From positions 1,736,001-1,800,000 of the forward strand of contig NZ_LT629792.1 in NCBI RefSeq assembly GCF_900106055.1: a stretch of 64,000 nt of DNA. Direction: 5' to 3'. Position numbers and translations under genes: made by a program. The notes under the pieces were generated by a model. That model was not told the origin of the DNA and did not search any database. It saw only the letters and a list, made by a program, of their open reading frames with translations. Position 1 is the stretch's first letter. Every line of letters starts with the position of its first letter. Positions 1,731 through 22,879 of this stretch are shown here, piece after piece. Origin of the DNA: Schaalia radingae (GTDB lineage Bacteria > Actinomycetota > Actinomycetes > Actinomycetales > Actinomycetaceae).

Positions 1731-1731
1731 G

Positions 1732-5791: not shown

Positions 5792-5817
5792 TGCAACCCT
5801 CCTTTCTTTATAGACAA

Positions 5818-5849: not shown

Positions 5850-5856
5850 GATGGAT

Positions 5857-6924: not shown

Positions 6925-6937
6925 GATTTCCTCCTAA

Positions 6938-7966: not shown

Positions 7967-7983
7967 TGCCTACCTCCAATTTT

Positions 7984-8036: not shown

Positions 8037-8089
8037 CACATCTAACGCTGATGTGAACAAGTCCAAACATCGTCGTTAAAGGATTCTCG

Positions 8090-8949: not shown

Positions 8950-8954
8950 TACCT

Positions 8955-9191
8955 TGTTGACAGGTCCTGATTGGCGGGTGTTGATTGGGATTGTCGGCCA
9001 GCCGCCCTGGCATGGTGTCTTGCCCCTGTCTATCCAATGATCCGGGGGGGTGTTGCCACCAGGGTCGGTTGCCAGCATGTGATCGCTGATTAGGGGCTCG
9101 GCACCAAGGATGGATGCCTGTCGTAACGTGGATGTGAGGCGTGCTGTCTAGGCTCGGCCGACTTATGGTGCAAACCGAGAGGACAACTGCC
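8955..9191 (+). ncRNA. Candidate IS110 bridge RNA region, copy 1
   Basis: IS110-group elements are known to encode a bridge RNA in the non-coding end upstream of the recombinase. Here the roughly 240-bp left end is rich in short self-complementary stretches. It holds GGGGGGGTG at 9044-9052, which can pair with the terminal CACCCCCC at 10407-10414 of the element, as a donor-recognition guide would. The RNA limits and loops are not determined. Confidence 0.35.
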
Positions 9192-10391
9192 ATGAGAACT
9201 GACCGACCAGACATTTTTCTAGGACTGGACGTCGGCAAGACCGACCACTGGGCCTGCGCACTAACCGATTCCGGGCAGGTGTTATGGAATAAGACCCTGC
9301 CCAACAACGAACAAAAACTCACTGATATCTACACGAATCTGTCAGCGAAAGGCTCTGTGCTGGTGGTCGTGGATCAGCCGGCAACAATCGGCGCTCTCGC
9401 CATCGCGGTCGCCCAACATATGGGCATCGAGGTCGCCTACCTGCCGGGGCTGACCATGCGCCGGATCGCTGACCTATACCCGGGCGAGGCGAAGACTGAT
9501 GAAAAGGATGCGTTCATTATCGCTGACGCAGCCCGCAGCCTTCCCCACATCCTGCGACAGCTCACCAAGACCGACCAGGACGAGGCAGGACTGGCGATGC
9601 TCACCGGTTTCGACCTTGACCTCTCACAGCAGGTCAATCAAGTCTCCAACCGGATCCGCGGGCTGTTCACCCAAATCCACCCTGAACTGGAAAGAGTTCT
9701 CGGACCACGCCTGGAACATGACGCAATCCTCGAAGTGCTCGCTACCTGGCCAACCCCGCAGGCTCTACGCAAAGCCGGGCGAGCGAGAATCGATGCGAAA
9801 CTCAAAAAGCACGGAGCTCGCCGCCACACAGCATGGACCGAGGATATTCTTACCGCGCTAGCGAAGCAGTCGGTGACAGTCACCGGCACCGAAGCCGCGG
9901 GCCTTGTCATACCGCACCTGGCTCGCCAACTGTTGAGTCTGCACGCTCAACGCGCCGATGTTGCAACCGAGGTAGAGAAGATCGTGGCCACCCACCCTCT
10001 TTACCTGGTCCTGAGATCCATGCCCGGCATCGGTCTCAGGACCGCCGCCATGATCATCGCCGAGCTCTCCGGCAAGACATTTACCAGCTCCGCCGCCCTG
10101 GCCTCCTACGCTGGCCTGGCACCGACCACCCGACAGTCCGGGTCATCGATCAAGTCTGAACGAGTCAGCCACTCAGGCAACAAACGCCTCAAACGTGCCC
10201 TGTTCCTGTCAGCTTTCGCCGTGATCCGCACCGACCCGGTCAGCCGCACCTACTACGACCGCAAACGAGCACAAGGCAAACGACACAACCAAGCCATCAT
10301 CGCCCTCGCCCACCGCAGACTCACAGTCCTGTACGCCATGCTCCGAGACGGCACCCTCTACGACGTCCCCGACACCGCCCTGGCAGCTTGA
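9192..10391 (+). CDS. IS110-family transposase (DEDD recombinase), copy 1
   Basis: A 399-residue recombinase. The N-terminal RuvC-like DEDD domain opens with LGLDVGKTDH. The C-terminal Transposase_20 domain begins at MPGIGLRTAAMI and carries the serine-rich segment QSGSSIKSERVSHSGNKRLK, which should hold the catalytic serine. I chose the ATG at 9192, because translation from there gives the usual start (MRTDRPDIFLGLDVG). An in-frame GTG at 9141 would add 17 residues lying over the non-coding end. The gene is intact and probably active. Confidence 0.9.
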   Translation: MRTDRPDIFLGLDVGKTDHWACALTDSGQVLWNKTLPNNEQKLTDIYTNLSAKGSVLVVVDQPATIGALAIAVAQHMGIEVAYLPGLTMRRIADLYPGEAKTDEKDAFIIADAARSLPHILRQLTKTDQDEAGLAMLTGFDLDLSQQVNQVSNRIRGLFTQIHPELERVLGPRLEHDAILEVLATWPTPQALRKAGRARIDAKLKKHGARRHTAWTEDILTALAKQSVTVTGTEAAGLVIPHLARQLLSLHAQRADVATEVEKIVATHPLYLVLRSMPGIGLRTAAMIIAELSGKTFTSSAALASYAGLAPTTRQSGSSIKSERVSHSGNKRLKRALFLSAFAVIRTDPVSRTYYDRKRAQGKRHNQAIIALAHRRLTVLYAMLRDGTLYDVPDTALAA

Positions 10392-10439
10392 CACACAACA
10401 TAGGGGCACCCCCCAAAAAACCCATTTGTGGCGTCTAGC

Positions 10440-11210
10440 CTAGAGAGAGATCAAAGTGTTCAGTGACGCCTCGAGAGTTGCCTCAACCGCCTTCGCAACG
10501 ATGTCGCGATCTGGTTCATAGGACGTCATTGTCTCGTCCTCATCCTTTAATGGGTTGCCATCGATGGCGAGCACCGCACCCGCACGAACCCTGTGGATCG
10601 AGGCGGTAATGAGCAGTGCGGCCACTTCCATCTCAACGCCCATGACTCCGGCATCGCGCCACATAGCTTGGTCATTTCCAAGGATCGGACTTGGATAAAA
10701 GTTGGCGCTTGTCAGAACGAGACCCGCGTGGGCCGTCAGCCCAGAATCCTTTGCTTTTTCCACGAGCTTGGAGGTCACTTCCAGATCCGACACGGCTGGA
10801 TAATTCATAGGCACCACGAGCTCGGAGTAGCCGTCGCAACGTACCGCGCCTGTAGCAATTAAGAGGTCGCCGTCAACCACGTTTGGCTGAACACCACCTG
10901 CGGTGCCAGCGCGAACGATGAACTTCGCCCCACCCCGGCACAGCTCCTCGAAACAACACGCAGCGCCAGCCGCACCAACCCCGTGCGACACAACGGTGAC
11001 TTTCTTTCCGTTGTACGTTCCAGAGTACGAATGGTACTCACGGTTCTTGGCAATCGGCATGGCGTCATTAAGCAGACCCGCAGCTTTCTCGGCGCGCTTC
11101 GGATCACCAACAACGAGCACCCGATCGCTAAGTTCCGCAACCGGAATCTGCGTTAGGGCGAGCGTCTCGTCATGGCCCTGACGAATAGGTGTGTATACCT
11201 TCTTTGACAT
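10440..11210 (-). CDS. Nucleoside phosphorylase (NP-I family, Udp/DeoD-like)
   Basis: A 256-residue member of the nucleoside phosphorylase-I superfamily, which splits nucleosides with phosphate into base and pentose 1-phosphate. The phosphate-site motif GDPKRAEKA, the VSHGVGAAGA and RAGTAGGVQ glycine loops and the nucleoside-binding GVEMEVAALL are all present. I chose the ATG at 11210 behind TAGGAG, 15 bp after the MTA phosphorylase stop codon. A longer frame reaching 11252 would overlap that gene. It is the last gene of the operon, only 26 bp from the IS110 end, and probably widens the range of nucleosides used. Whether it prefers purines or uridine cannot be read from the sequence. Confidence 0.85.
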   Translation of the reverse strand: MSKKVYTPIRQGHDETLALTQIPVAELSDRVLVVGDPKRAEKAAGLLNDAMPIAKNREYHSYSGTYNGKKVTVVSHGVGAAGAACCFEELCRGGAKFIVRAGTAGGVQPNVVDGDLLIATGAVRCDGYSELVVPMNYPAVSDLEVTSKLVEKAKDSGLTAHAGLVLTSANFYPSPILGNDQAMWRDAGVMGVEMEVAALLITASIHRVRAGAVLAIDGNPLKDEDETMTSYEPDRDIVAKAVEATLEASLNTLISL

Positions 11211-11224
11211 GGAAACTCCTAAAT

Positions 11225-12019
11225 CTAAATATCTGTCAATGCTTCGTGGCACTGGCAGGAATCATCAACTTCTAACATTTCAACGAGAGTCGCGAGTGCC
11301 TTCTTGATGCGTGGCTGGCCGTCAGCGGTAGTACGCCAGACGAGTCCCGCAGTTACGGGATCGTCCTGCATACCCTCGACGCCAGCGTCGAGGTCCGATA
11401 CGAACGACAGGTTGCAGACGCACATGCCAAGCTCACGCGCGAGAGTTGTCTCTGGATGTTGTGTCATCGAGATCACAGAGAATCCCAGATTCTGGAAGAC
11501 CTGCGACTCTGCACGCGTCGAGAAACGCGGCCCCTGAATAACCACCGCCGTTCCCCCGTCGTGGAACTTCTCATCAAGCGCTCCGAGAGCGGCGACGGCC
11601 GAGTCGTGCAACCGCGGGCAATACGGATCCGCAACCGATACGTGCACAACGTTTGGCCCCTCGAAGAAGGTTTGGTCACGCCCCCACGTCCTATCAAAAT
11701 ATTGGTCCGTGATGACGAAATCTCCGGGAGCATAGTCGGCTCTCAAGGAACCCACAACCGATGACGTTACGAGCGTCGTCACTCCGAGATTGTCCATTGC
11801 CTTGAGGTTTGCTCGATAGTTGATGAGGTGCGGGGGGACCCCGTGGTCTTTACCGTGGCGGGTCATGAAGGCGACCTCCTTGCCGCCGATCTCACCAATC
11901 GAGACCTCCGAGGAGGGACGACCATACTCAGTGTCAACCGTTACGTGCTCTGGATCTTCTAGGAGCTCGTACAGCCCCGACCCTCCAATAATACCTACCT
12001 TTGGCATGTCATTCACCAT
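11225..12019 (-). CDS. mtnP: S-methyl-5'-thioadenosine phosphorylase family protein
   Basis: A 264-residue protein of the MTAP family, which converts methylthioadenosine (or 5'-deoxyadenosine) plus phosphate to adenine and the 5-substituted ribose 1-phosphate. Visible motifs are IGGSGLY (residues 11-17), the phosphate and substrate segment TRHGKDHGVPPHLINYRAN (53-71) and GPRFSTRAES (163-172). A D-x-D pair at 209/211 matches the aspartates that select 6-aminopurines, which argues for an adenosine-type rather than an inosine-type substrate. The start overlaps the dehydrogenase gene by 7 bp; a second ATG at codon 5 is also possible. It makes the substrate for MtnA, encoded at the head of the same operon. 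Confidence 0.88.
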   Translation of the reverse strand: MVNDMPKVGIIGGSGLYELLEDPEHVTVDTEYGRPSSEVSIGEIGGKEVAFMTRHGKDHGVPPHLINYRANLKAMDNLGVTTLVTSSVVGSLRADYAPGDFVITDQYFDRTWGRDQTFFEGPNVVHVSVADPYCPRLHDSAVAALGALDEKFHDGGTAVVIQGPRFSTRAESQVFQNLGFSVISMTQHPETTLARELGMCVCNLSFVSDLDAGVEGMQDDPVTAGLVWRTTADGQPRIKKALATLVEMLEVDDSCQCHEALTDI

Positions 12020-12777
12020 CCTGCTACAGCGGACATTCCTCCGTCTACTACGAGGTCATGTCCAGATATGAAACTGGCCGAGTCTGACGAGAGAAAGACG
12101 CAAGCTCGGCCAATGTCTTGCGGATTCGCAGTTCTTTGAAGTGGCACTCCAGCCATCCAGCTGTTGTAGCCGGCCGGCCAGCTTTCAGCGAGACTGCCGT
12201 CGCTGTCTATAAGTCCGGGTGAGACTGAGTTCGCGCGAATTCCGTATCGTCCAAGTTCGAGAGCCAGATTCCGAGTAAACATCTTGACGCCTGCCTTTGA
12301 AGCATCATAGTGCGCATGATTCATCGCCGGCACCGATGCCTCAACCGAGGCAATATTGATAACGCTCCCGGACACCTTCTTGTCGATCATGTGCGTTGTA
12401 ACAGCCTTCGAAACGATGAAAGTTCCGTTGAGGTTAACATCAACCACTTTTCTCCACTGCTCGACTGTCAAGTCTGCAAAGGAGGTGACTGGCTGGATAC
12501 CCGCATTGTTGACGAGAACGTCGATCTGCCCAAAATGCTGCGCAACATCGTCAACCATGGCCTTGGCATCCGCCTCCGAGCAAACGTCGCCTGTCACCTG
12601 CCCCACAGTGGCGCCAAGTTCGCGCAAGTTCTCGGCTAGCTTGTTGCCTTGGTCATTTTCAACAAGTGAATGGACTATGACAGTTGCGCCGGCCCTGGCA
12701 ACCTCATAAGAAATCCCTGTGCCTAGCTTGCCGTCGGCACCAGTAATGAGGACGACCTTGTTCTGTAGTTCTTTCAT
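12013..12777 (-). CDS. Short-chain dehydrogenase/reductase
   Basis: A 254-residue classical SDR. It shows TGADGKLGTG near residue 13 for NAD(P) binding, NNAG near 90, a catalytic serine at the start of SVEAS, the Tyr-x-x-x-Lys pair in HYDASKAG and the C-terminal GHDLVVDGG typical of FabG-like enzymes. Its substrate is unknown. In this operon it could reduce or oxidise the aldehyde released by the aldolase, or oxidise a sugar intermediate. The start overlaps the aldolase stop codon (ATGA), so the two products are probably made in step. Confidence 0.85.
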   Translation of the reverse strand: MKELQNKVVLITGADGKLGTGISYEVARAGATVIVHSLVENDQGNKLAENLRELGATVGQVTGDVCSEADAKAMVDDVAQHFGQIDVLVNNAGIQPVTSFADLTVEQWRKVVDVNLNGTFIVSKAVTTHMIDKKVSGSVINIASVEASVPAMNHAHYDASKAGVKMFTRNLALELGRYGIRANSVSPGLIDSDGSLAESWPAGYNSWMAGVPLQRTANPQDIGRACVFLSSDSASFISGHDLVVDGGMSAVAGW

Positions 12778-13397
12778 GCGTGAATCAGCTCCACTCCTTC
12801 TGGGAATTTGGTTTTACTATCGCCAAGCAGCATCGCTTGGAAGGTATTCCTGGCTGCCTGTTCGAGCAATGACGCGCGGCGGAACGCCATCTCGGGGTCT
12901 TCGCCCACAGTGCAGCTTCCGTGGTGCGATAAGACCACACAGTTGTGTTCTGTCATCTGGCGAGCAGACTCATCGGCGAGCTCATCTGAGCCATTTGGGT
13001 AATACGGGACAACGCCTACTGACTTCACGTAAAGCGCGTCGTCCAGTGTAAAGAATCTAATCTTGTGTCCGAGTGCGCTCAGCAGGACGGTATTTTGCGG
13101 ATGTAAATGAAATACCGAGTTCACGTCGTCGCGCGCTTCGTAGATCCTGTCGTGTAGCTTCCATTCACTCGAAGGTCGGGTCTCGAACGGGCCAGTGTCA
13201 CCAACAGTCATTTTCGCAAATGAGTCCCGCGTCAGTTCACCGAGCCATGTACCCGACTTCGTAATGAAGTACTCGTTCGATCCAGGTAACCGGGCCGAGA
13301 TATTTCCCCCCGAGCCCAGCACTAGTCCAGACGACACAGCAGAGCAGGCATGAATAATTAACCGATCTATCAGCCCCTCAGGTGTCTTATGTATCAT
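12774..13397 (-). CDS. Class II aldolase, probable 5-deoxy/methylthio-ribulose-1-P aldolase
   Basis: A 207-residue zinc aldolase of the FucA/AraD/MtnB fold. The phosphate loop GSGGNISAR (28-36), TKSG (46-49), a Glu78 matching the catalytic glutamate of fuculose-phosphate aldolase, His97 and His99 (HLHP) and His158/159 are all in place. The fold alone does not separate an aldolase from the MtnB dehydratase. The genes that follow MtnB in methionine salvage (enolase-phosphatase, dioxygenase) are absent, while mtnA and phosphorylases are present. I therefore infer retro-aldol cleavage of the ketopentose 1-phosphate to DHAP plus acetaldehyde or methylthioacetaldehyde. It starts 20 bp after the GntR gene. 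Confidence 0.82.
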   Translation of the reverse strand: MIHKTPEGLIDRLIIHACSAVSSGLVLGSGGNISARLPGSNEYFITKSGTWLGELTRDSFAKMTVGDTGPFETRPSSEWKLHDRIYEARDDVNSVFHLHPQNTVLLSALGHKIRFFTLDDALYVKSVGVVPYYPNGSDELADESARQMTEHNCVVLSHHGSCTVGEDPEMAFRRASLLEQAARNTFQAMLLGDSKTKFPEGVELIHA

Positions 13398-13417
13398 TTC
13401 TCCCTCTTTTCATTGGT

Positions 13418-14191
13418 TCAATTCCGAACCCTCATCATCGAAAACTGGAACCTTCCCTCGCGAAAGAATGACCGCGCGTACAGGATAGGAAGGTGAGTTC
13501 TATCAAAATGCAACTGATGAAGCCCCAAGAAAGACTCATCACGGGCCTCCATCGAGAGTCCAAAGTCGCTTCCAACCACAGCGTGCACGTCCGTCGATGC
13601 GTATTTGATCGAATGACCCACGAGGTCGCAAAGGGTGAAAATCGACCCATGCATTTCCTCGACATCGAACTCTGCAGGAAAGATTCCGGCTCGAATAACC
13701 TCGAAAGAAACCGCGACCATTGCTCCGTCAGCTTCGACCTCACGTCGAGTCTCAATAACTCTTTCCCCGTCGCCAAGCCGGAGAACGTCTCTCTCATCTT
13801 CGGTGGGCGTCCGAACGCATTTGTCCGTGTAGCGTATTGTGGGATCCATCCCGGCGTTAGCGATTGTTTGCGACATCGATGTCAACTCCGACAGGTTTGA
13901 AGCCATAACAGCCTGGGCATCCGTCACGAATGTTCCCGAGCCGTGCCGACGGATCACGAGGCCCTGAGCCGCTAACTCCTGTAACGCCGACCGCAAGGTG
14001 TTCCGCGAGACGCCCAACTCAGAAGCTAGCGTCGGCTCGGACGCCAGTGCTTCCCCCGGCTCCCACTCACCCGCGTAAATGCGGTTCCTTAATTCTGCCG
14101 CGACATCTGCCGCAGCTCCGAGGTTCGGAGTTCTCATTGCCGGCGGAGTCAAAGCCGTACCCGTTTGCGAGTAAATGGGCCGCGAGTTCAT
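13418..14191 (-). CDS. GntR family regulator with UTRA ligand domain (HutC type)
   Basis: A 257-residue regulator. Residues about 25-95 form the winged helix, with LASELGVSRNTLRSALQEL as the recognition region and the wing motif HGSGTFV. Residues about 110-245 form a UTRA domain, which usually binds a small phosphorylated sugar or related metabolite. It sits inside the operon, between the cupin and the aldolase, and is the only regulator in the unit. It probably represses the operon through the 10-mers flanking the mtnA promoter until a pathway intermediate binds. An internal ATG 18 codons later is an alternative start. Confidence 0.92.
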   Translation of the reverse strand: MNSRPIYSQTGTALTPPAMRTPNLGAAADVAAELRNRIYAGEWEPGEALASEPTLASELGVSRNTLRSALQELAAQGLVIRRHGSGTFVTDAQAVMASNLSELTSMSQTIANAGMDPTIRYTDKCVRTPTEDERDVLRLGDGERVIETRREVEADGAMVAVSFEVIRAGIFPAEFDVEEMHGSIFTLCDLVGHSIKYASTDVHAVVGSDFGLSMEARDESFLGLHQLHFDRTHLPILYARSFFREGRFQFSMMRVRN

Positions 14192-14192
14192 G

Positions 14193-14645
14193 TCACTGTC
14201 CTTCGTGTAGTTTGGCGTGTAATGTTTCTATTCCATGCGCGGTCAACATCTCCTCACTTGCCAGTTCAAAACCGTCCCATGTGAAACCCGGTGCCATGGT
14301 TGTACCCAGTAGTGTCCATTCGCCCAACGACATCGAGCCCTGCCAGACGCCTGCCTCCACCACGTGCTGGGGCCTCTGGCCCGCCCTCAGATCCATGCCG
14401 AGAATTACCTCTGACCTGCGACCCAAGTCATCAATCTGGACCAGGAGTAGAGGCGCTCCCGCATACCAGTGGTAGACCTCTGAACCGCTGAGCCTGTGGA
14501 GTTCTGACCACTGGTCGCCACCAACGAGGTAGTAGATCGCGGTGGAGTTATCATCGATAAATGTCTGCCGGTGTAGGCCGCCTTCTTGGTCTAGCTCGGT
14601 AAGATCGAGTAGTTTGGCTACCTCGTCACGAGTCAACGGATTCAT
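14193..14645 (-). CDS. Cupin_5 (DUF985) family protein
   Basis: A 150-residue single-domain cupin. The segments ASTAIYYLV-like (here STAIYYLVGGDQWSELHRL), EVYHWYAGAPL, GWQ-type VEAGVWQGS and the closing TTMAPGFTWDGFELA match the DUF985/cupin_5 pattern. Family members are small sugar- or metabolite-binding cupins, mostly without an assigned reaction. It may be an epimerase or a sensor-like accessory for the deoxypentose intermediates, but that is a guess from context. The gene begins inside the permease gene (20-bp overlap) and ends 1 bp before the regulator. Confidence 0.82.
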   Translation of the reverse strand: MNPLTRDEVAKLLDLTELDQEGGLHRQTFIDDNSTAIYYLVGGDQWSELHRLSGSEVYHWYAGAPLLLVQIDDLGRRSEVILGMDLRAGQRPQHVVEAGVWQGSMSLGEWTLLGTTMAPGFTWDGFELASEEMLTAHGIETLHAKLHEGQ

Positions 14646-15543
14646 GGTCTGCTTCCTCTCTTGTCTTCCTAAAGTTGAAAGTGGTCAGCAAGAGTGCCAG
14701 TAGTGTCACAACATATGGAGCAGCATCTGTGACTTGGGTCGGAATCCCAACACCCTGCGCACGAAAACCGATCGCCTCGGCAGCACCGAATAGTGTTGCC
14801 GCGCCGAGGACACCAATCGGGTGTGAACGTGCAAGCATGACGGAAACGACCGCGATCCAGCCACGACCAGCTGACATCTCTTCAGAAAACTGCACCACAT
14901 TACCCAACGAGAGCTGCGCGCCTCCTAGGCCACACAGGAGCCCCGACAGGATAACTGCCGCATACTTGTACGTAACTGGATTGACGCCGAGCGTTTGAGC
15001 GGCAAGTGGTTTCTCACCTACACCGCGGAGTCTGAGTCCTGCGGGCGTTCGGAAGATTACAATCCAGAAGACGAAAACGAGAATGAACGCCAGATATCCA
15101 AGAATTGTTTGATTGAACAGTGCGTTGCCAACCCACGGAATATCCGCGAGCAACGGGATGCGATAGGTCTCCAGTCCGACGATTCGCGGATCAACGAATG
15201 TTCCCGAGGTGTTGAAAAGGCCAACCAACAGGAACGATGTGATTCCTGTTGCGAGAATATTCATTGCGACGCCCACGACGATCGGCTCTGCCCCTCGATT
15301 GACGCTTCCGTACGCCAAAATAAGTGTGAAGATTCCCGATGCGGTCATCGCACCAAGCGCACCTAGGAGCGCACTCCCGGTGAAGTAGGACGTGGCAACC
15401 GCAAAGAACGCTCCTACCAAGAGCTGGCCCTCCAACGCGATATTGAAGATCCCCGCCTTGTCACAAATCAATCCACCGAGCGCGGCGAAAAGGATCGGAA
15501 TTAACGCCCGAACGATTGAATCTATCAGCGCTGCATCAAACAT
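14626..15543 (-). CDS. Nucleoside-type ABC permease, second subunit (YufQ-like)
   Basis: A 305-residue integral membrane protein of the BPD_transp_2 family (branched-chain amino acid, ribose and nucleoside permeases), with about eight to nine hydrophobic helices. The cytoplasmic loop GLRLRGVGEKPLAAQTLGVN is the coupling motif expected for the nucleoside subgroup that pairs with BMP-type binding proteins. It forms a heterodimer with the larger permease encoded just upstream, with which it shares one base. The upstream gene order (lipoprotein, ATPase, permease, permease) matches the Bacillus yufNOPQ/nupNOPQ layout. Confidence 0.9.
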   Translation of the reverse strand: MFDAALIDSIVRALIPILFAALGGLICDKAGIFNIALEGQLLVGAFFAVATSYFTGSALLGALGAMTASGIFTLILAYGSVNRGAEPIVVGVAMNILATGITSFLLVGLFNTSGTFVDPRIVGLETYRIPLLADIPWVGNALFNQTILGYLAFILVFVFWIVIFRTPAGLRLRGVGEKPLAAQTLGVNPVTYKYAAVILSGLLCGLGGAQLSLGNVVQFSEEMSAGRGWIAVVSVMLARSHPIGVLGAATLFGAAEAIGFRAQGVGIPTQVTDAAPYVVTLLALLLTTFNFRKTREEADHESVDS

Positions 15544-16742
15544 TAATTCGCATTCCCTTCTGCAACGGCAACCGTTTCATCCGTAGGTTGCAATGCATCT
15601 GCATGATCGGACGCGTGCTCACGAGCGATACTTCTTCGACGCTTCTTGAAATTCGGCAAAGTGACCCTGAATACGATCAGGATAATTACGACACCTTGGA
15701 TCACGGAGGCGATCTGCGGCGACATACCTAGTCCGCGACTCATCGCACTTGCGCCCGCCATGATCGCGCCGAAGAATGCTCCAGCAGCAAGGACGGCAAA
15801 CGGACGATACATCGCAAGCAATGCGACCATGAGCCCTGTCCAGGCATAGCCCGAAGACAGCAAGGCTCCGTCAATCAATCGCGTCTCTGGCGCTCCGATC
15901 GTCAGAAGTACTCCAACAAGACCGGCGATGCCACCAGAGAGCGTCATGACCTGGAGTGTCAGTTTCCGTTCGTGACCGCCACCATATTCGATGAATCTGG
16001 GATTTATTCCATTGATCCCCGATTCGTAGCCGAAGATGGTGTTCCTATTAACGTAGGCCATCCCGACAACAACCAGCAGGATGATGACGAAAGACCAATT
16101 GATTGAACTACCGATCGTTGAAACCAAGTTGCCTCGACCCAGACCGTTAGATACCGATTGACCGAGCCCAGAGTTTAATGGCAACAACATCGGAATCTGC
16201 ACGTCGAGCCGGATTTGTTCGGTCGCTACCATCTGTGACGTCTGATCCTTCAAGGGGTATCGGATCATCCAAGAGGAGAAGAATCTTGCCGGGTAGGACA
16301 GTAGGAGCGAGGTGATAAGAATTGGCACCCCAGGCCAGAACTGTAGTACCGCCGACACCAACGCCCACAGAGCGCCCCCCGCGATTCCTCCTAGAATTGC
16401 GCATATCATAACGATAATTCCGGGTCCCGGCATATATAGCGCAACTATGCCGCCGACCAAGCCACCCATGATCATCTGACCTTCGGTACCGATGTTCAAG
16501 ATGCCGGATCGAAACGCGACAGCTGTTGCCATCGCCATACCGACAAGCGGGATCGCACGCTGGATTGTATTGGTAATTCCCGACGGAGAAAGAATTGATC
16601 CTTCAGCCATCGTTAAGTATGCCTCAACCGGGGAGTACCCAGCCAAGAGGATGAAGATAGCGCCAACGACAAAGGCCAACACGATTGACAGCGGAATTGG
16701 GCCGGTCAGCCAACGTACAAATGCATTACCGTTATTCCTCAT
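15543..16742 (-). CDS. Nucleoside-type ABC permease, first subunit (YufP-like)
   Basis: A 399-residue membrane protein of the BPD_transp_2 family. It has an N-terminal helix near residues 14-36, about nine further helices and a charged C-terminal tail of about 35 residues rich in Arg, His and Asp. GTEGQMIMGGLVGG near residue 85 and GINPRFIEYGG near 245 match the nucleoside-permease subgroup; in that subgroup this first subunit is longer than the second because of an extended periplasmic loop, as here. It overlaps the ATPase gene by 11 bp, so its ribosome-binding site lies inside that gene. Confidence 0.9.
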   Translation of the reverse strand: MRNNGNAFVRWLTGPIPLSIVLAFVVGAIFILLAGYSPVEAYLTMAEGSILSPSGITNTIQRAIPLVGMAMATAVAFRSGILNIGTEGQMIMGGLVGGIVALYMPGPGIIVMICAILGGIAGGALWALVSAVLQFWPGVPILITSLLLSYPARFFSSWMIRYPLKDQTSQMVATEQIRLDVQIPMLLPLNSGLGQSVSNGLGRGNLVSTIGSSINWSFVIILLVVVGMAYVNRNTIFGYESGINGINPRFIEYGGGHERKLTLQVMTLSGGIAGLVGVLLTIGAPETRLIDGALLSSGYAWTGLMVALLAMYRPFAVLAAGAFFGAIMAGASAMSRGLGMSPQIASVIQGVVIILIVFRVTLPNFKKRRRSIAREHASDHADALQPTDETVAVAEGNAN

Positions 16743-18252
16743 CTGACACCGTCCCTCCGGCCATCAATAGGCCAAGCTTGCTCTCAGTCGCCTCACTGAC
16801 AGGCATTTGGGCAACGATTTCACCCTCGTACATCACGGCTACGCGGGTCGACAATGAGAGAATTTCGCTCAGTTCGGCACTAATCAGAAGGATTCCGCCA
16901 CCGGAATCGCGGTAATCGGTCAATGTAGAATGAATGAACTCAATTGCACCGATATCGACACCTCTGGTTGGTTGTTCCGCAACTAGTAGTGGAGATTCGT
17001 GCTCCATCTCACGCGCAATGAGAATCTTCTGTAAGTTTCCACCCGACAGAGTCCCTACAGCGACATTTTCATTGGCAATCTTCACCGAAAATTTGTCGAT
17101 GAGTCTCCGCGCAAACGACTTTCGCGCGGGAAGATCGATGATCCCCTTCCGCTTTGTGAGCTCCTCGCCGTAGTGGTGTCCCATGGCGAGGTTTTCCTCT
17201 GCTGAGGCCGTCGTCGCCGCGCCCACTCCCTGTCGATCCTCGGGGATGTACGCCAAACCCGCCTCACGCCGCGTTCGAACAGATGCGTTTGTGACTTCTT
17301 TGTCCATGACGGAGATCGAGCCGTGCTCCACTGGCGTCAAACCTGCGATTGCACTTGCAAGTTCTGTCTGGCCATTGCCAGCGACACCCGCGATACCAAG
17401 AATTTCACCCTGACGCACTGTTAGCGACAAGTCCTTAACCTTCGCTTGTTTTTGAGAATCGCGAACGCTGAGATTTTCAACTTTCAGGACAGGCCGGCCA
17501 GGGTCAAACTGCGAAGGAGCTTGAGTCAGATCAACATCACGACCAGTCATCGCCTGAGTCACTGATTCGGGTGTCGCCTCAGACGTCTTCATCCGGGCAA
17601 CCACACGTCCGTCACGCAAAACAGTCACGCGATCCGAAATATCCATCACCTCGCGCAGCTTATGCGTAATGAGAATGATTGTCTGTCCCTGTTGCTTAAG
17701 ATGGCGTAGCACGCCAAAAAGCTGATCCGTCTCCTGTGGTGTCAATACCGCGGTTGGTTCGTCCAGAATTAGCACCTTCGCACCGCGGTAGAGAACCTTG
17801 ATGATCTCTGCGCGTTGGAGCAGACCCACCGGCGCATTTGCAACGCGCACGCGCGGATCCACATCAAGCCCGAAGCGTGTCGCAAAATCTTCAACGATCT
17901 TGATCGCTTCCTCCCGGTCGATCAGCACACCCTTGGTCGGCTCCTTACGAAATACCACATTCTCGGCGACGGACATTGAGGGAAACATCTGGAATTCTTG
18001 GAACACCATTCCGATTCCAGCCCTGATCGCATCGAGCGGGCTCGAAAAGTGCACTTCCTTTCCTTCGAGGAAGATAGAGCCCTCATCGGGAGTGTAGAGG
18101 CCTGAAAGAATTGACATTAAGACTGACTTGCCGGCGCCATTTTCCCCCATGAGCGCATGGATCTCTCCCTTCTTGACTGAAAAAGTCACGTCATCATTCG
18201 CGAGGACCCCGGGGAACTGCTTTGTAATGCCCCTCATCTCAACATCTAACAC
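16732..18252 (-). CDS. Double-domain ABC ATPase of a nucleoside importer (YufO-like)
   Basis: A 506-residue ATPase made of two fused nucleotide-binding domains. The first has Walker A GENGAGKS (near 37-44) and Walker B VLILDEP, but its signature motif is degenerate (VGLLQRAEI). The second has a degenerate Walker A (GVAGNGQTE) but a full LSGGNLQK signature. This asymmetric pair of sites is normal in the RbsA/YufO group and drives a two-permease importer. It starts with GTG behind AGGAGG, right after the intercistronic hairpin. Confidence 0.95.
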   Translation of the reverse strand: MLDVEMRGITKQFPGVLANDDVTFSVKKGEIHALMGENGAGKSVLMSILSGLYTPDEGSIFLEGKEVHFSSPLDAIRAGIGMVFQEFQMFPSMSVAENVVFRKEPTKGVLIDREEAIKIVEDFATRFGLDVDPRVRVANAPVGLLQRAEIIKVLYRGAKVLILDEPTAVLTPQETDQLFGVLRHLKQQGQTIILITHKLREVMDISDRVTVLRDGRVVARMKTSEATPESVTQAMTGRDVDLTQAPSQFDPGRPVLKVENLSVRDSQKQAKVKDLSLTVRQGEILGIAGVAGNGQTELASAIAGLTPVEHGSISVMDKEVTNASVRTRREAGLAYIPEDRQGVGAATTASAEENLAMGHHYGEELTKRKGIIDLPARKSFARRLIDKFSVKIANENVAVGTLSGGNLQKILIAREMEHESPLLVAEQPTRGVDIGAIEFIHSTLTDYRDSGGGILLISAELSEILSLSTRVAVMYEGEIVAQMPVSEATESKLGLLMAGGTVSDEE

Positions 18253-18278
18253 TGCAACCCTCCTTTCTTTATAGACAA

Positions 18279-18310
18279 GGGAGGGGTCGAGAAGTGTTTC
18301 GACCCCTCCC
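18279..18310 (-). terminator. Intercistronic hairpin after the binding-protein gene, copy 2
   Basis: This repeats the perfect 12-bp stem and 8-base loop seen at 5818-5849. It lies between the lipoprotein stop codon and the ATPase ribosome-binding site and lacks a T-tract. An unrelated hairpin holds the same place in the sugar transporter operon at 52710-52758, which supports a role in setting subunit ratios. Confidence 0.7.
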
Positions 18311-18317
18311 GATGGAT

Positions 18318-19385
18318 TTAGTTGAACTTGCCGGTAGCATCCGGCGGCGTGATTTCGCCGTCGATGATCTGCTGCTTTATCGTTGCAAGCTGCTCAACGA
18401 CCTCCGGGTGCTCCATGACCGTGCATTGTGAATCCTCAGCACCAGGTGCGAGAGACACGATGTCCATGCCACCCTCTGCAAGCCCGAAGGAACTAAATTG
18501 GTCGGCGGTGCCGGCATCGATGTCGGCAATTAGTTGCGGAATAAGAGTATCCATCAACTTCAGAGTGCCGTCACCTACACCGCCAGGAGTGAGCGGACAC
18601 TGGTTGACGTCAACGCCGTAGCCTGTCACACCGCCCTCGCCTGTAGCCTCAAAGACTCCACCGTTGGAGCCTGAAGCCACCGCGAAGATATGATCCACGT
18701 CTTGAGCCACAAGCGCAGCTGCCTGTTCCTTGGCACGCGCCGGATCTGAGAACGGGCTATCGCCTCCGATGAATAGTTGCTGATCGGCAACGTCCGGGTT
18801 TGCATCCTTTGCCCCCTGAGCGAACGCATCAGTGTAACGGTGGATGAATGGAATATCGACGGCACCGACAGACCCGATATTGTTGGTTTCCGTGAGCAGA
18901 CCGGCCTCGTAACCGAGCAGGTAGGCCGCCTCGTGTTCGCGGAAGACCGCGCAATACATGTTTGGCGGGTACGGCTCGTCGGGGCAGTCATCAATATGGA
19001 TGAACTTCTGATCGGGGTAACGCTCAGCGTACTCGAATGCCACGTCGGTGTACGAGAACGTAATCGTCACGATGTAATCAGGGCTCTCCGAAACAGCCTG
19101 ATCCATGTTTTGACGGATCGAGGTCTGCTCAGAACTACCTTCATAAACCTTAGCTGTTCCGCCGTTCTGCTCCGCCGCTTGCTCAACGCCGATCTTGCCC
19201 GACTCTAGAAACTTGTTCACTCCAATAGGATCATTTGTCAGGTAGATGTAGGTCGGACCGCCCGATCCGCCTCCATCGCCTCCCGAACCAGCTTCACCTT
19301 CTTCGCTGCATGCTGCCAGTGACAGTGCAAGCGCCGCTGTGCCGACGAGTGCCGCCAGCTTGTACTTCGCCTTTGAAGTAACCAC
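18318..19385 (-). CDS. BMP/PnrA-like nucleoside-binding lipoprotein
   Basis: A 355-residue exported substrate-binding protein. The N-terminus has a Lys-rich n-region, a hydrophobic stretch and the lipobox LAAC with Cys26, followed by a Gly/Ser-rich linker. The mature part has the BMP family layout: YIYLTNDPIGV strand, DYIVTITFSYTDVAFEYAERYPDQKFIHID, then LGYEAGLLTETNNIGSVGAV and VASGSNGGVFEA. Known BMP proteins (Med/PnrA/BmpA, YufN) bind nucleosides. Here the neighbours suggest 5'-deoxyadenosine, methylthioadenosine or related nucleosides as ligand; that is inference. It lies 13 bp after mtnA. Confidence 0.92.
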   Translation of the reverse strand: MVTSKAKYKLAALVGTAALALSLAACSEEGEAGSGGDGGGSGGPTYIYLTNDPIGVNKFLESGKIGVEQAAEQNGGTAKVYEGSSEQTSIRQNMDQAVSESPDYIVTITFSYTDVAFEYAERYPDQKFIHIDDCPDEPYPPNMYCAVFREHEAAYLLGYEAGLLTETNNIGSVGAVDIPFIHRYTDAFAQGAKDANPDVADQQLFIGGDSPFSDPARAKEQAAALVAQDVDHIFAVASGSNGGVFEATGEGGVTGYGVDVNQCPLTPGGVGDGTLKLMDTLIPQLIADIDAGTADQFSSFGLAEGGMDIVSLAPGAEDSQCTVMEHPEVVEQLATIKQQIIDGEITPPDATGKFN

Positions 19386-19398
19386 GATTTCCTCCTAA

Positions 19399-20427
19399 TT
19401 AGTTTGATCGTGTGCGAATGGGGCCTAGGGGAACCGTCGAGGGAGACTCTCCTCGATCAACGCGTATCACTCTGCGATCAGTCACAATGGCCGTAATGTT
19501 CTCGTGCGGGGTGACGTCAAAAGCGGGATTAATCGCCTGAGTCTCCTCTGGAGCAGTGCGTACCCCGTGGAAGTTCACAACCTCCTCGGTCCCGCGATCT
19601 TCGATTTCAATATCAGCACCCGTCTTCGTCTCCATGTCAATGGTGGATTCAGGAGCCACCACGATCACAGGGAGGTTCATTGCCTTCGCCCCTAGAGACA
19701 GGGAGTAGGTTCCGATCTTGTTGGCGGTGTCGCCATTTGCCGTAATCCGGTCCGCGCCCGCGAAGAACGCCTGAGCGAAGCCTCTTCTGAGAAGAAACGG
19801 TCCCGCGGAATCGACAATAAGGCGATACGGAGCGCCCATCTGCTCGAGCTCCCACGCCGTCAGGCGCGAACCCTGAAGGAGCGGTCGCGTCTCAACAGGG
19901 AGTGCCTCCTTGAGCGTGCCACGCTCAAACATGGTTTGAATGACGCCGAGGGCCGTACCGCGCTCCACGCACGCCAACCCTCCCGTGTTACAAACGGTCA
20001 TGATCGCGTGTTGACCTTCTCCAAGCAGCTCTTCTATAAGATCCGCGCCGTACTGCCCCATGGAATAACACGAGGCAATATCCTCATCGCGAATCGCGAG
20101 CGCTTCTTCAAGGATCCTGTCTTTACCCTCGTTCGCGTATTCCATCACGCGCCTCACCCCCCACGAGAGATTGACTGCGGTTGGGCGTGCGTTTGCGAGC
20201 CTACGGGAGGCGTCCTCAAGCTCCGCACCTTTCAATCCTTGCTGCGCGATAAGAGCGACTCCCATACCGCCAGCAACTCCAAGAGCCGGCGCGCCTCGCA
20301 CAGCAAGTCGCTTGATGTCGTTGATCAAATCGTCGAGCTCCGTCACAGTACGAACTTCGAGTTCGCCTGGAAGTTTGGTCTGATCGATGAGCTCGATATG
20401 CCCATCAACCCAATCAATAGTCCTCAT
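19399..20427 (-). CDS. mtnA: S-methyl-5-thioribose-1-phosphate isomerase
   Basis: A 342-residue aldose-ketose isomerase of the eIF2B-like MtnA family, converting methylthioribose 1-phosphate (or 5-deoxyribose 1-phosphate) to the ribulose form. The substrate loop RGAPALGVAGG (44-54), the catalytic Cys146 in VCNTGGLA and Asp226 in GADRITANGDTANKIGT, which matches the proton-transfer aspartate, are all there. Length is normal for the family. It is the first gene of the operon, and its product links the two phosphorylases to the aldolase. No methylthioribose kinase gene is present, so the route must run through phosphorolysis. Confidence 0.95.
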   Translation of the reverse strand: MRTIDWVDGHIELIDQTKLPGELEVRTVTELDDLINDIKRLAVRGAPALGVAGGMGVALIAQQGLKGAELEDASRRLANARPTAVNLSWGVRRVMEYANEGKDRILEEALAIRDEDIASCYSMGQYGADLIEELLGEGQHAIMTVCNTGGLACVERGTALGVIQTMFERGTLKEALPVETRPLLQGSRLTAWELEQMGAPYRLIVDSAGPFLLRRGFAQAFFAGADRITANGDTANKIGTYSLSLGAKAMNLPVIVVAPESTIDMETKTGADIEIEDRGTEEVVNFHGVRTAPEETQAINPAFDVTPHENITAIVTDRRVIRVDRGESPSTVPLGPIRTRSN

Positions 20428-20444: not shown

Positions 20445-20497
20445 CAAGTTGTTCTACAAGTATTGCCCACGTGTGCTATCTTGTCAACAAGTTGTTC
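20445..20497 (-). promoter_or_regulatory. mtnA operon promoter with paired operator-like 10-mers, copy 2
   Basis: Same layout as 7984-8036: leftward -35 TTGACA at 20487-20482, -10 AATACT at 20464-20459, and CAAGTTGTTC at 20445-20454 and 20488-20497. Copy 2 drives the only version of the operon that is complete within the window. Confidence 0.65.
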
Positions 20498-20550
20498 CAC
20501 ATCTAACGCTGATGTGAACAAGTCCAAACATCGTCGTTAAAGGATTCTCG

Positions 20551-20838
20551 ATGGATCAACAAACAATACTCGAAGCCTTCGGGTGGCTTGGCTCATTCCT
20601 TGTCGTCATGTCGCTCGTCCTGCCCAACCAGAAGAAGTTCCGATTCTGGAACCTAGTTGGAAGCGGCATCGCCGCCATCTATAATCTGCTCTTGGGCGTT
20701 TGGTCAATGGTCATCATGAACGCGGCCATCGTTATCATCGACGTCTATTGGCTCCATCGGCTCATCACCGAGGGCAGATCGACGCAACCCATTAGAATTG
20801 ACAGCGAGCTCGATAGCAAGGCAACGCCAGAATCCTAG
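20551..20838 (+). CDS. Small membrane protein, YgjV/CBU_0592-like, copy 2
   Basis: Identical to the 95-residue protein at 8090-8377: three hydrophobic segments, a basic NQKKFRFWN turn and an acidic tail. It is the only rightward gene of the unit apart from the transposase. No function is known. It could be an unrelated passenger trapped between operon and IS. Confidence 0.6.
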   Translation: MDQQTILEAFGWLGSFLVVMSLVLPNQKKFRFWNLVGSGIAAIYNLLLGVWSMVIMNAAIVIIDVYWLHRLITEGRSTQPIRIDSELDSKATPES

Positions 20839-21410
20839 GGCGTCACCTCAGGTCTACTAAACTGCGGGATCCACGACTCCCGATGAGAATGTGTCCGGAA
20901 CGGGTCACCATCCATCATGCGCATCCGCTCGGCCAACCTGCAGGAGCACGGACTCTGGGCCCGAGTACAGCCGATGCCGAGTAGCGTGGCAAACTGCCCT
21001 CTCCCCGAAATTTCGATGAGACATCGCAGCTCATTTCCCGCTCCCGCAGCGCTTGAATTTCGCGGCGTCTTAGACGCCGTATAGGCAACCTCGCCGGGCG
21101 TCGACGCAAGGCCTGCCTCGCAGTCATCAAACCCATGAGCCTCCTCCACCAGCTATACTTAGCAGAGAAGGCCTGAACGAGCAGGAGCGTCGAGCGAATA
21201 CTGACCGCCCCATGTATTTCTAGCATGTTGGTGGTGAGGTGCCGGAGAGGGCCGTCTTCGCCAGAGCCGCGCGTAATCTCAGATCAACCTATCCACATGT
21301 TCGTGGCTTCGATAGCAAGGGCACGACCTGCTCCGGCACGTCGGGTAGCGCAATGTGGCAGCGTCAGAGACTCGCTAGTCTTCTTCGCGACGGGAGTCAC
21401 GAATGCCCGT
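20839..21410. other. Non-coding stretch before the insertion sequence, copy 2
   Basis: The same 570 bp as 8378-8949, with the tight palindrome at 21063-21079. I see no gene, RNA or promoter that I can support. Confidence 0.5.
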
Positions 21411-21415
21411 TACCT

Positions 21416-21652
21416 TGTTGACAGGTCCTGATTGGCGGGTGTTGATTGGGATTGTCGGCCAGCCGCCCTGGCATGGTGTCTTGCCCCTGTCTATCCAATG
21501 ATCCGGGGGGGTGTTGCCACCAGGGTCGGTTGCCAGCATGTGATCGCTGATTAGGGGCTCGGCACCAAGGATGGATGCCTGTCGTAACGTGGATGTGAGG
21601 CGTGCTGTCTAGGCTCGGCCGACTTATGGTGCAAACCGAGAGGACAACTGCC
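21416..21652 (+). ncRNA. Candidate IS110 bridge RNA region, copy 2
   Basis: Same left-end sequence as copy 1, with the GGGGGGGTG guide candidate at 21505-21513 and the matching CACCCCCC at 22868-22875. Limits are undetermined. Confidence 0.35.
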
Positions 21653-22852: not shown

Positions 22853-22879
22853 CACACAACATAGGGGCACCCCCCTGTT

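What the first reader, a model, noticed from the sequence alone, without database searches (positions are those of the whole stretch)
10440..20427. Nucleoside importer joined to a complete DHAP-shunt operon
One operon encodes a BMP-type nucleoside ABC importer, MTA phosphorylase, a second nucleoside phosphorylase, MtnA, a class II aldolase, an SDR, a cupin and a GntR/UTRA regulator. MtnA plus class II aldolase is the known core of the DHAP shunt, which disposes of the 5'-deoxyadenosine and methylthioadenosine by-products of SAM enzymes. Here phosphorylases replace the nucleosidase and kinase, and a dedicated importer makes it look like a catabolic pathway for scavenged 5'-modified nucleosides. 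The later enzymes of methionine salvage are missing. I do not know of this combination being described in Actinomycetaceae.
Basis: partly seen in the sequence, partly recalled or inferred. Interest (0 to 1): 0.85.

Follow-up and report, generated by a model that had tools for sequence, protein, structure and literature searches.

The report
Duplicated operon, likely for 5'-deoxynucleosides
An Actinomycetaceae bacterium carries two identical, mobile-element-flanked copies of an operon that looks built to import leftover 5'-deoxy nucleosides, by-products of common cell chemistry, and use them as food by a variant of a known pathway.

Summary
The operon is real and as described: MtnA, BMP lipoprotein, ABC ATPase, two permeases, DUF985 cupin, GntR/UTRA regulator, class II aldolase, SDR, MTA-phosphorylase-like enzyme and a second nucleoside phosphorylase, all on the minus strand. 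A close importer lipoprotein occurs in 4 of 213 family genomes searched: this one and three Actinotignum. Six congeners have the same locus without the unit.

Best reading: a DHAP-shunt version for imported 5'-deoxynucleosides. The genome has a separate BMP importer beside cdd, a pyrimidine phosphorylase, deoC and PNP for ordinary nucleosides. The second phosphorylase resembles Plasmodium PNP, which also uses 5'-methylthioinosine, and almost equally a streptococcal uridine phosphorylase, but lacks the histidine both have at the 5'-OH site; its base is uncertain. Some relatives add a deaminase-like gene or an aldolase-SDR fusion.

The phosphorylase variant of the shunt and shunt operons with transporters are in print. 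New are the two-phosphorylase, BMP-importer, SDR and cupin arrangement and its duplication. Substrates are inferred; no activity was tested.

The parts
10440..11252 (-). second nucleoside phosphorylase (PNP2), NP-I family, Plasmodium-PNP-like, aliphatic residue at the 5'-OH His position
   Evidence: PF01048; Plasmodium PNP leads the PDB matches by phmmer and fold, with S. pyogenes uridine phosphorylase level by profile; His position
11225..12019 (-). MTA-phosphorylase-like enzyme (MTAP/MtnP)
   Evidence: TIGR01694 258.8 bits, cut-off 274.9; aligns to Sulfolobus and human MTAP with FS and DxD motifs kept
12013..12777 (-). short-chain dehydrogenase; proposed aldehyde dehydrogenase/reductase
   Evidence: PF13561; adjacent to aldolase; relatives with an aldolase-SDR fusion
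12774..13397 (-). class II aldolase, proposed 5-deoxyribulose-1-phosphate aldolase
   Evidence: PF00596; FucA and DrdA (6btd) relatives in PDB; E78, H97, H99, H159 invariant in 23 aligned sequences
13418..14191 (-). GntR/UTRA regulator
   Evidence: PF00392 + PF07702
14193..14645 (-). cupin, DUF985/Cupin_5, function unknown
   Evidence: PF06172; 1znp, 1yud relatives, no function given
14626..15543 (-). ABC permease 2
   Evidence: PF02653
15543..16742 (-). ABC permease 1
   Evidence: PF02653
16732..18252 (-). ABC ATPase, two ABC domains
   Evidence: PF00005, 2 stretches
18318..19385 (-). BMP/PnrA-type nucleoside-binding lipoprotein
   Evidence: PF02608; nearest folds bind guanosine, adenosine, uridine; five of six contact residues invariant among 11 relatives
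19399..20427 (-). MtnA, 5-(methylthio/deoxy)ribose-1-phosphate isomerase
   Evidence: TIGR00512 359 bits over cut-off 279
20445..20501 (-). candidate promoter (TTGACA-17 bp-AATACT) between two direct repeats TGTRGAACAACTTG, candidate GntR operator
   Evidence: similar repeats lie upstream of MtnA in Actinotignum
20551..20838 (+). divergent small membrane protein, 95 aa, YgjV-like (below Pfam cut-off)
   Evidence: found in L009, L010, L011, L136, L137, 5 of 16 loci scanned; PF10688 21.5 bits, cut-off 23.5
8946..10414 (+). IS110-family element, copy 2 of 3 (transposase 9141-10391)
   Evidence: PF01548 + PF02371; boundaries
21407..22875 (+). IS110-family element, copy 3 of 3 (transposase 21602-22852)
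1..8945 (-). first copy of the operon unit, part inside the window (aldolase 313-936 to MtnA 6938-7966); rest at window -2046 to 0
   Evidence: 100% identical, 10,992 bp each

Best explanation
The operon is a mobile, amplified catabolic island for 5'-deoxy and 5'-methylthio purine nucleosides taken from outside the cell. The lipoprotein and ABC transporter import the nucleoside. Two phosphorylases split off the base: the MTAP-like enzyme takes the adenine kinds (5'-deoxyadenosine, MTA), and the Plasmodium-PNP-like enzyme probably takes the 6-oxopurine kinds (5'-deoxyinosine, methylthioinosine). Both give 5-deoxyribose 1-phosphate or its methylthio form. MtnA isomerises that to the ribulose 1-phosphate, and the class II aldolase splits it into DHAP, which enters glycolysis, and acetaldehyde or methylthioacetaldehyde. 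The SDR reduces or oxidises the aldehyde. The GntR/UTRA protein represses the operon from sites around the MtnA promoter until substrate is present. Shown here: genes, order, conservation, duplication, motif loss. Inferred: all substrates, aldolase cleavage, SDR role, repression. The cupin and the small membrane protein have no assigned step.
For: Core enzymes present and colinear. Same 11-gene order in 3 of 3 Actinotignum loci; the same 11 genes, rearranged, in a Bifidobacteriaceae MAG, and 10 of the 11 in an Arachnia contig whose fetched locus begins at the lipoprotein gene, so MtnA was not seen. Close MtnA (over 400 bits) and close PNP2 (over 250 bits) occur in the same 4 genomes in two searches of 396 genomes of the order. 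Ordinary nucleosides are served elsewhere: BMP importer, cdd, pyrimidine phosphorylase, deoC and PUNP at 448-459 kb, plus DeoD and MTAN. PNP2: 117 of the 120 best-scoring of 824 homologs, the window's own among them, have L/I/V/M where PfPNP and the genome's own DeoD have His; in PfPNP, His7Phe and His7Ser shift preference towards methylthioinosine (PMC3885546). The PfPNP acid Asp206 is kept (D231) but is absent from the S. pyogenes uridine phosphorylase. A TRZ/ATZ-type amidohydrolase, the group that holds the MTA and 5'-deoxyadenosine deaminases, sits in 5 of 11 PNP2 loci. An aldolase-SDR fusion of the RhaEW kind sits beside MTAP, PNP2 and the importer in L136; RhaEW is a shown aldolase plus aldehyde dehydrogenase (PMC3870299). 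Urine holds MTA, MTI, 5dAdo, 5'-deoxyinosine (PMC10986504).
Against: PfPNP Tyr160, which its authors find critical for methylthioinosine, is Phe (F185) here, as in enzymes that prefer inosine, and His7Ala in PfPNP did not shift the preference (ratio 2.2 against 1.6). By profile PNP2 is as close to S. pyogenes uridine phosphorylase (217.1 bits, 38% identity in Foldseek) as to Plasmodium PNP (218.1 bits, 33-37%), so its base is uncertain. The MTAP-like protein falls under the MTAP cut-off, and PNP2 far under every cut-off. The amidohydrolases score best with chlorohydrolase/TRZ-ATZ models and stay under the deaminase cut-offs (e.g. 276 against 522; only 3 of the 5 were scanned). The aldolase belongs to a wide actinobacterial family; 56 of 85 tree rows show no MtnA-like gene (60 bits or more) in the locus fetched, though some loci are cut short. 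No such amidohydrolase was found in this genome (no positive control). The L136 fusion's SDR domain is only 25% identical to the operon's SDR.
Confidence: 0.67

Rival explanations
1. The operon degrades ordinary purine or pyrimidine nucleosides: the phosphorylases give ribose 1-phosphate, MtnA makes ribulose 1-phosphate, and the aldolase yields DHAP and glycolaldehyde, which the SDR reduces or oxidises.
For: The lipoprotein's nearest solved relatives bind common nucleosides. NCBI has a haloarchaeal ribulose-1-phosphate aldolase family that the aldolase matches weakly (62 bits, cut-off 300). A streptococcal uridine phosphorylase is as close to PNP2 by profile as Plasmodium PNP, and Foldseek ranks uridine phosphorylases high. 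PNP2 has Phe at PfPNP Tyr160, as inosine-preferring enzymes do.
Against: A classical nucleoside locus with its own BMP importer exists in the same genome, with DeoD and MTAN elsewhere. PNP2 lost the 5'-OH-site histidine. The MTAP-like enzyme keeps hydrophobic residues like Sulfolobus MTAP where the 5' group lies (roles recalled).
Confidence: 0.11
2. It disposes of 5'-deoxyadenosine and MTA made inside the cell by SAM enzymes; the importer only recaptures what leaks out.
For: Disposal is the role proposed for the related three-gene clusters (PMC6079011, passages seen).
Against: The genome has an MTAN, no other member of its genus has a close copy of the lipoprotein among the 213 family genomes searched, and a four-gene importer plus regulator is costly for disposal. 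In E. coli the shunt was found to be neither detoxification nor significant sulfur salvage but to allow carbon use (PMC10986504, passages seen).
Confidence: 0.12
3. The substrate is another 5'-modified nucleoside, for example a 5'-halogenated, 5'-acyl or antibiotic-type nucleoside, with the cupin or SDR acting on the side group.
For: [quoted passage not shown] The cupin and SDR recur in the close relatives but have no step in the plain shunt.
Against: No gene seen in the neighbourhood points to a particular modified nucleoside; the MTAP and amidohydrolase partners point to adenine nucleosides.
Confidence: 0.07
4. The class II protein is a methylthioribulose-1-phosphate dehydratase and the operon is a piece of methionine salvage.
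For: Class II aldolases and MtnB share a family.
Against: MtnB score 56 bits against cut-off 137; no ARD found in the genome; the glutamate aligned with that of DrdA in PSSE is invariant in 23 sequences.
Confidence: 0.03

Closest known systems
DHAP shunt of E. coli ATCC 25922 (mtnK, mtnA, ald2, putative transporter, MtnR)
   Same: MtnA plus class II aldolase; transporter in the operon; own regulator; patchy, island-borne
   Different: E. coli uses nucleosidase plus kinase; here two phosphorylases, a BMP ABC nucleoside importer, GntR/UTRA instead of the DeoR-type MtnR, plus SDR and cupin
Phosphorylase (MtnP) variant of the DHAP shunt / 5-deoxyribose disposal clusters (Beaudoin 2018, e.g. Clostridium phytofermentans)
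   Same: MTAP-like phosphorylase, MtnA-like isomerase, FucA-like aldolase; some clusters with sugar transporters
   Different: Here a second, Plasmodium-PNP-like phosphorylase, a BMP-type importer, SDR, cupin and UTRA regulator
5'-Fluorodeoxyadenosine path of Streptomyces cattleya (as mentioned in PMC6079011)
   Same: 5'-substituted adenosine converted to DHAP and a substituted acetaldehyde
   Different: Biosynthetic setting, no importer-linked operon (both recalled)
RhaEW bifunctional L-rhamnulose-1-phosphate aldolase/L-lactaldehyde dehydrogenase
   Same: Class II aldolase and SDR acting in series; a RhaEW-type fusion stands among the operon's orthologs in G144 (L136)
   Different: In the window the two are separate proteins with low identity to the fusion
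Plasmodium falciparum PNP
   Same: Among the closest solved folds and sequences to PNP2; Asp206, Met183, Arg45 equivalents kept
   Different: His7 replaced by Leu, Tyr160 by Phe; S. pyogenes uridine phosphorylase scores as high by profile
PnrA/BmpD/Lbp nucleoside-binding lipoproteins
   Same: Fold, lipoprotein-type N-terminus, base-stacking Phe and ribose-binding Asp/Lys
   Different: 27% identity or less in the fold search; ligand untested

Membership tests
DHAP shunt | MtnA-type isomerase | tested here: met
   TIGR00512 359 bits, cut-off 279
DHAP shunt | class II (FucA/Ald2/DrdA-like) aldolase in the same operon | tested here: met
   PF00596; DrdA 6btd at 62.6 bits; E78, H97, H99, H159 invariant in 23 sequences
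DHAP shunt | entry step: nucleosidase plus kinase, or MTA/5dAdo phosphorylase | tested here: met
   MTAP-like enzyme with MTAP motifs, but score slightly under cut-off
DHAP shunt | lack of later methionine-salvage enzymes (seen in many carriers) | tested here: met
   no ARD found in genome; no MtnB over cut-off
DHAP shunt | cleavage of 5-deoxyribulose 1-phosphate to DHAP and acetaldehyde | not testable with these tools
   needs purified enzyme
S-methyl-5'-thioadenosine phosphorylase (TIGR01694) | score over curated cut-off | tested here: not met
   258.8 against 274.9; the L136 ortholog passes with 288.6
uridine phosphorylase (TIGR01718) | score over curated cut-off | tested here: not met
   PNP2 174.5 against 280.3
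Plasmodium-type PNP/MTI phosphorylase | general acid Asp206 and Met183, Arg45 | tested here: met
   D231, M208, R71; R71 and M208 invariant and D231 in at least 90% of the 47 rows of A2
Plasmodium-type PNP/MTI phosphorylase | Tyr160 for the 5'-methylthio group | tested here: not met
   F185 at that place
PnrA-like nucleoside-binding protein | fold and base/ribose contact residues | tested here: met
   F59, D132, F212, D259, K276 invariant in the 11 rows of A3; the sixth (PnrA F206) is F in the operon type and M or I in L047, L050, L071; PnrA numbers partly recalled; fold match 7x0r, 6shu, 6yab
PnrA-like nucleoside-binding protein | ligand | not testable with these tools
   needs binding assay
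composite (IS-bounded) mobile unit | cargo between two copies of one IS | tested here: met
   three IS110 copies bound two cargo copies
composite (IS-bounded) mobile unit | transposition of the whole unit | not testable with these tools
   no second insertion seen; IS110-type ends have no inverted repeats to check (recalled)

The most novel reading that the evidence does not exclude
A dual-specificity 5'-deoxynucleoside eating operon: one importer feeding two complementary phosphorylases, one for 6-aminopurine (MTA, 5'-deoxyadenosine) and one for 6-oxopurine (5'-deoxyinosine, methylthioinosine) substrates, so that it can use the whole set of 5'-deoxynucleosides reported from urine. It spreads between host-associated Actinomycetales and, in this strain, has been amplified in tandem between IS110 elements, as expected if extra gene dose pays. 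PNP2 would head a large actinobacterial family of 5'-deoxynucleoside phosphorylases now often labelled uridine phosphorylase. (Lowered from 0.38 on rechecking, because the profile search puts a true uridine phosphorylase level with Plasmodium PNP.)
Probability: 0.35. Interest if true: 0.66.

Novelty: new variant of a known kind. Interest (0 to 1): 0.52.

Why it matters
5'-Deoxynucleosides are by-products of SAM enzymes and are reported to build up in urine, yet I saw no dedicated, characterised uptake system for them in the papers looked at: the E. coli shunt operon carries only a putative permease. If the reading is right, this gives a named binding protein to test, a new phosphorylase specificity class (a histidine-to-aliphatic change that flags 5'-deoxy substrates in sequence databases), and a case of gene amplification around a nutrient-scavenging operon. 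Actinotignum, which carries the same operon, is a genus found in the urinary tract (recalled), which makes the ecological question directly testable.

Tried and rejected
Methionine salvage: rejected, no ARD found and no MtnB over cut-off. Plain uridine phosphorylase for the second phosphorylase: thought unlikely on the cut-off, the kept PfPNP acid Asp and the lost 5'-OH-site histidine, but not excluded, since S. pyogenes uridine phosphorylase scores level by profile. Common ancestry of all MtnA-linked aldolases: not settled; in a FastTree of 85 rows the window groups with the three Actinotignum sequences (100) and more weakly (82) with L046 and L048, a join the program flags as long branches meeting. 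Vitamin B6 transporter: NCBI's putative B6 ABC models are the best hits for lipoprotein and permeases, but 58 against 400, 172 against 465 and 112 against 400 bits, so not filed there; the genome's other BMP lipoprotein also hits that model (91 bits). Which aldolase residue near position 120 acts as acid was considered; the alignments gave no firm answer and nothing is claimed. An IS110 tandem-amplification precedent was searched (listing of 8 of 27 only) and none was read. Naming the organism through its alanine racemase gave only distant named hits, Schaalia, Actinomyces and Sanguibacter at 53-55% (best 120 of 7601). A palindrome scan of the whole window gave 27 matches with up to 2 mismatches against 10.9 expected, inflated by the duplication; not used. 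Paper searches for the combination; none of the listed titles or abstract beginnings describes it; one search listed only 20 of 20,670 papers, and the library lacks most subscription journals.

Dropped rows: L135, L151, L152 and L153 were left out as the same contigs as L048, L078, L075 and L080. The operator scan did not include L009, a near-copy of L010; the operator pattern was chosen after looking at the sequences. Searches hid SDR, GntR and ATPase hits under 60 bits, one search hits under 50 bits. One search kept the best 80 of 111 confirmed stretches.

Full report
WHAT IS THERE. The window is bases 1,736,001-1,800,000 of a single 2,430,193-bp contig, G000. Between 10440 and 20427 on the minus strand lie eleven genes in transcription order: MtnA, BMP lipoprotein, ABC ATPase, two permeases, DUF985 cupin, GntR/UTRA regulator, class II aldolase, SDR, MTAP-like phosphorylase, and a second NP-I phosphorylase called PNP2 here. 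Six of the ten junctions overlap and the other gaps are 1-65 bp, so one transcript is likely. A twelfth gene, a 95-aa membrane protein, is divergent at 20551-20838 + and was found beside MtnA in L009, L010, L011, L136 and L137, 5 of 16 loci scanned.

DUPLICATION. Window 1-10414 equals 12462-22875 exactly. With the flanking stretch L003, the structure is IS110 - unit - IS110 - unit - IS110: IS copies at window -3515 to -2047, 8946 to 10414 and 21407 to 22875, the last two identical and the first differing by one G in a run; the two units are 10,992 bp each and identical. The element was found three times in the genome, all here, and is of the IS110 family. GC is 0.549 for the operon against 0.589-0.595 for the flanks. 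The simplest origin is an IS-unit-IS arrangement followed by unequal crossing-over between the IS copies (inference). An assembly error is not excluded but is unlikely in a single-contig genome.

ACQUISITION. In 6 of 6 congeners taken from the sample, both flanks are found in the same order with no IS match in the 16-kb regions fetched. In L155 the conserved blocks on the two sides are about 0.6 kb apart; in G000 the same blocks are about 27 kb apart, which fits two units and three IS copies. MtnA was found in none of these 6 congeners. In the 213 genomes of the family searched, a close lipoprotein (E at most 1e-60) occurs in 4: this genome and three of one other genus. The coordinates of those three equal the Actinotignum contigs, so the family is Actinomycetaceae. 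A further member may carry the set or part of it: Trueperella sp. LYQ143 has a 63% aldolase and a 57% PNP2 homolog whose longest contigs have the same length, 180,442; its genes were not fetched and no Trueperella turned up by name.

RELATED LOCI. The aldolase brought in 80 loci, the best of 111. The same 11 genes in the same order stand in all three Actinotignum loci (L009, L010, L011; the first two near-copies), with proteins 72-90% identical in L010 and the small divergent protein 66%. The same 11 genes, rearranged, stand in a Bifidobacteriaceae MAG (L048). An Arachnia locus (L046) has 10 of the 11, MtnA not seen because the fetched locus starts at the lipoprotein, plus an amidohydrolase. 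L136 (G144; contig length equal to that of a Cellulomonas fimi protein's longest contig) has MtnA, importer, cupin, PNP2 and MTAP, with a RhaEW-type aldolase-SDR fusion, another SDR and an amidohydrolase, and no homolog of the separate aldolase or of the regulator in the fetched 20 kb. Modestobacter excelsi (L044) has importer, cupin, SDR, GntR and MtnA, no MTAP, beside a second, more distant MtnA-PNP2-aldolase set. A simpler kind (importer, distant MtnA, PNP2, aldolase) stands in L047, L050 and L071. In two searches of 396 genomes of the order, MtnA over 400 bits and PNP2 over 250 bits occur in the same four: G000, G084, G144, G239; in G239 they lie on different contigs, MtnA near a contig end.

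WHICH NUCLEOSIDES. Three lines point to 5'-modified nucleosides. First, the genome has another BMP importer, at 448 kb, followed by cytidine deaminase, pyrimidine-nucleoside phosphorylase and deoC, with a phosphohexomutase-like gene and PUNP on the opposite strand, and further DeoD and MTAN genes; ordinary nucleosides do not need the present operon. Second, the phosphorylases. The MTAP-like enzyme keeps the FS and DxD motifs of MTAP and a hydrophobic stretch like that of Sulfolobus MTAP where ordinary PNPs bind the 5'-OH (which residues do what is recalled). PNP2 is closest to Plasmodium PNP by phmmer and Foldseek (model pLDDT 92.1); by profile S. pyogenes uridine phosphorylase is level with it (217.1 against 218.1 bits) and has slightly higher identity in Foldseek (38% against 33-37%). 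It keeps the PfPNP acid (D231), which that uridine phosphorylase lacks, but where both enzymes and the genome's own DeoD have the 5'-OH-site histidine it has Leu. Of the 120 best of 824 homologs, the window's own included, 117 have L, I, V or M there, two have Cys and in one the place falls before the start. In PfPNP, changing this histidine to Phe or Ser lowered the inosine/methylthioinosine ratio of kcat/Km from 1.6 to 0.3 or 0.1, but Ala gave 2.2 (PMC3885546, tables seen through passages). Against this, PfPNP Tyr160, critical for the methylthio group, is Phe here (F185), so 5'-deoxyinosine may be a better guess than MTI. Third, 5 of 11 loci with PNP2 carry an amidohydrolase of the TRZ/ATZ group, as expected if PNP2 takes deaminated nucleosides; of the three scanned, all score with the MTA/SAH-deaminase and 5'-deoxyadenosine-deaminase models but below their cut-offs and below the chlorohydrolase or TRZ/ATZ models. 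No such gene was found in G000 (no positive control).

IMPORTER. The lipoprotein model (pLDDT 85.2) is closest to Lbp with guanosine, BmpD with adenosine and PnrA with uridine or adenosine. Five PnrA stacking and ribose-binding residues (F36, D110, F186, D238, K260; numbers partly recalled, partly from passages of PMC7093131) are invariant in 11 aligned lipoproteins, while the F206 place varies in the simpler kind. It is thus very likely a nucleoside binder; 5'-deoxy preference is not shown.

ALDOLASE AND SDR. The aldolase's nearest solved relatives are FucA and DrdA; in 23 aligned sequences E78, H97, H99 and H159 are invariant (their roles as acid/base and zinc ligands are recalled). RhaEW is a shown L-rhamnulose-1-phosphate aldolase joined to an SDR lactaldehyde dehydrogenase (PMC3870299, passages); its use in L136, and again near MtnA in L139 (2 of 24 loci), suggests that the operon's SDR acts on the aldehyde released by the aldolase, although the two SDRs share only 25% identity. 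The cupin (1znp and 1yud relatives) has no assigned role; an anomer- or isomer-handling role is only a guess.

REGULATION. Upstream of MtnA, TTGACA and AATACT are 17 bp apart (20487-20482 and 20464-20459), flanked by direct repeats TGTGGAACAACTTG (20501-20488) and TGTAGAACAACTTG (20458-20445). The second repeat's core stands upstream of MtnA in L010 and L011, and the first with one or two changes. A looser form (TTG-N5-YAACW) stands within about 220 bp upstream of MtnA in 6 of the 7 loci scanned that have a close MtnA, not in L137; 8 of the 20 hits of that pattern in the 11 sequences scanned lie there, the rest elsewhere. The looser pattern was drawn up after seeing the sequences. A binding site of the GntR/UTRA protein is the likely meaning.

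WHAT IS ALREADY KNOWN. Beaudoin et al. 2018 (PMC6079011, abstract and passages) showed 5-deoxyribose salvage by Bacillus thuringiensis enzymes and listed clusters with MTA-phosphorylase-like instead of kinase genes, some with sugar transporters, in six phyla. The 2024 E. [quoted passage not shown] The 2025 paper (PMC12632272, abstract and passages) shows the E. coli shunt operon with a putative transporter under MtnR and CRP. So the pathway, its phosphorylase entry and the presence of transporters are not new. I saw no description of a BMP importer with two phosphorylases, SDR and cupin in the listings, and none of the IS110-bounded duplication; the library misses most subscription journals.

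VERDICT. It is a new variant of a known kind. On rechecking, the odds of the best reading (0.68 to 0.67) and of the boldest one (0.38 to 0.35) were lowered slightly for the uridine-phosphorylase tie.

Noticed in passing
window -3515 to 22875: Perfect tandem duplication of the operon between three direct IS110-family elements; only three copies of the element found in the genome.
   Followed up: yes
G000 448-459 kb (L179): A second BMP-type importer followed by cdd, pyrimidine phosphorylase and deoC, with a phosphohexomutase-like gene and PUNP on the other strand: an ordinary-nucleoside locus.
   Followed up: partly
P0121-P0240: A large phosphorylase family, in several source records labelled uridine phosphorylase, with an aliphatic residue instead of the 5'-OH-site histidine in 117 of 120 listed; perhaps misnamed.
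   Followed up: partly
P0005 and P0125: Trueperella sp. LYQ143 has a 63% aldolase and a 57% PNP2 homolog on contigs of the same length (180,442), so another Actinomycetaceae member may carry the set.
   Followed up: no
L059, L064, L068, L072, L073, L076 (Leucobacter): MtnA (281-302 bits) with a GntR gene, the aldolase and another kind of ABC ATPase (202-211 bits): perhaps a sugar-importing version of the shunt.
   Followed up: no
L139: A RhaEW-type aldolase-SDR fusion (567 bits) near MtnA and a GntR gene, in genome G172; one search lists its MtnA match with one TAG inside although a 354-aa open frame is also given.
   Followed up: no
L044: Modestobacter excelsi carries two differing MtnA sets side by side (112 and 448 bits).
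   Followed up: partly
L060, L075, L078, L080: GntR, distant MtnA and aldolase clusters in Arthrobacter, Brevibacterium and Ruania; in L060 with a purine-nucleoside phosphorylase over its cut-off, PNP2 and an amidohydrolase.
   Followed up: partly
window 20839-21406 and 8378-8945: About 570 bp between the small membrane-protein gene and the IS element, inside the repeated unit; small open frames there were not examined.
   Followed up: no
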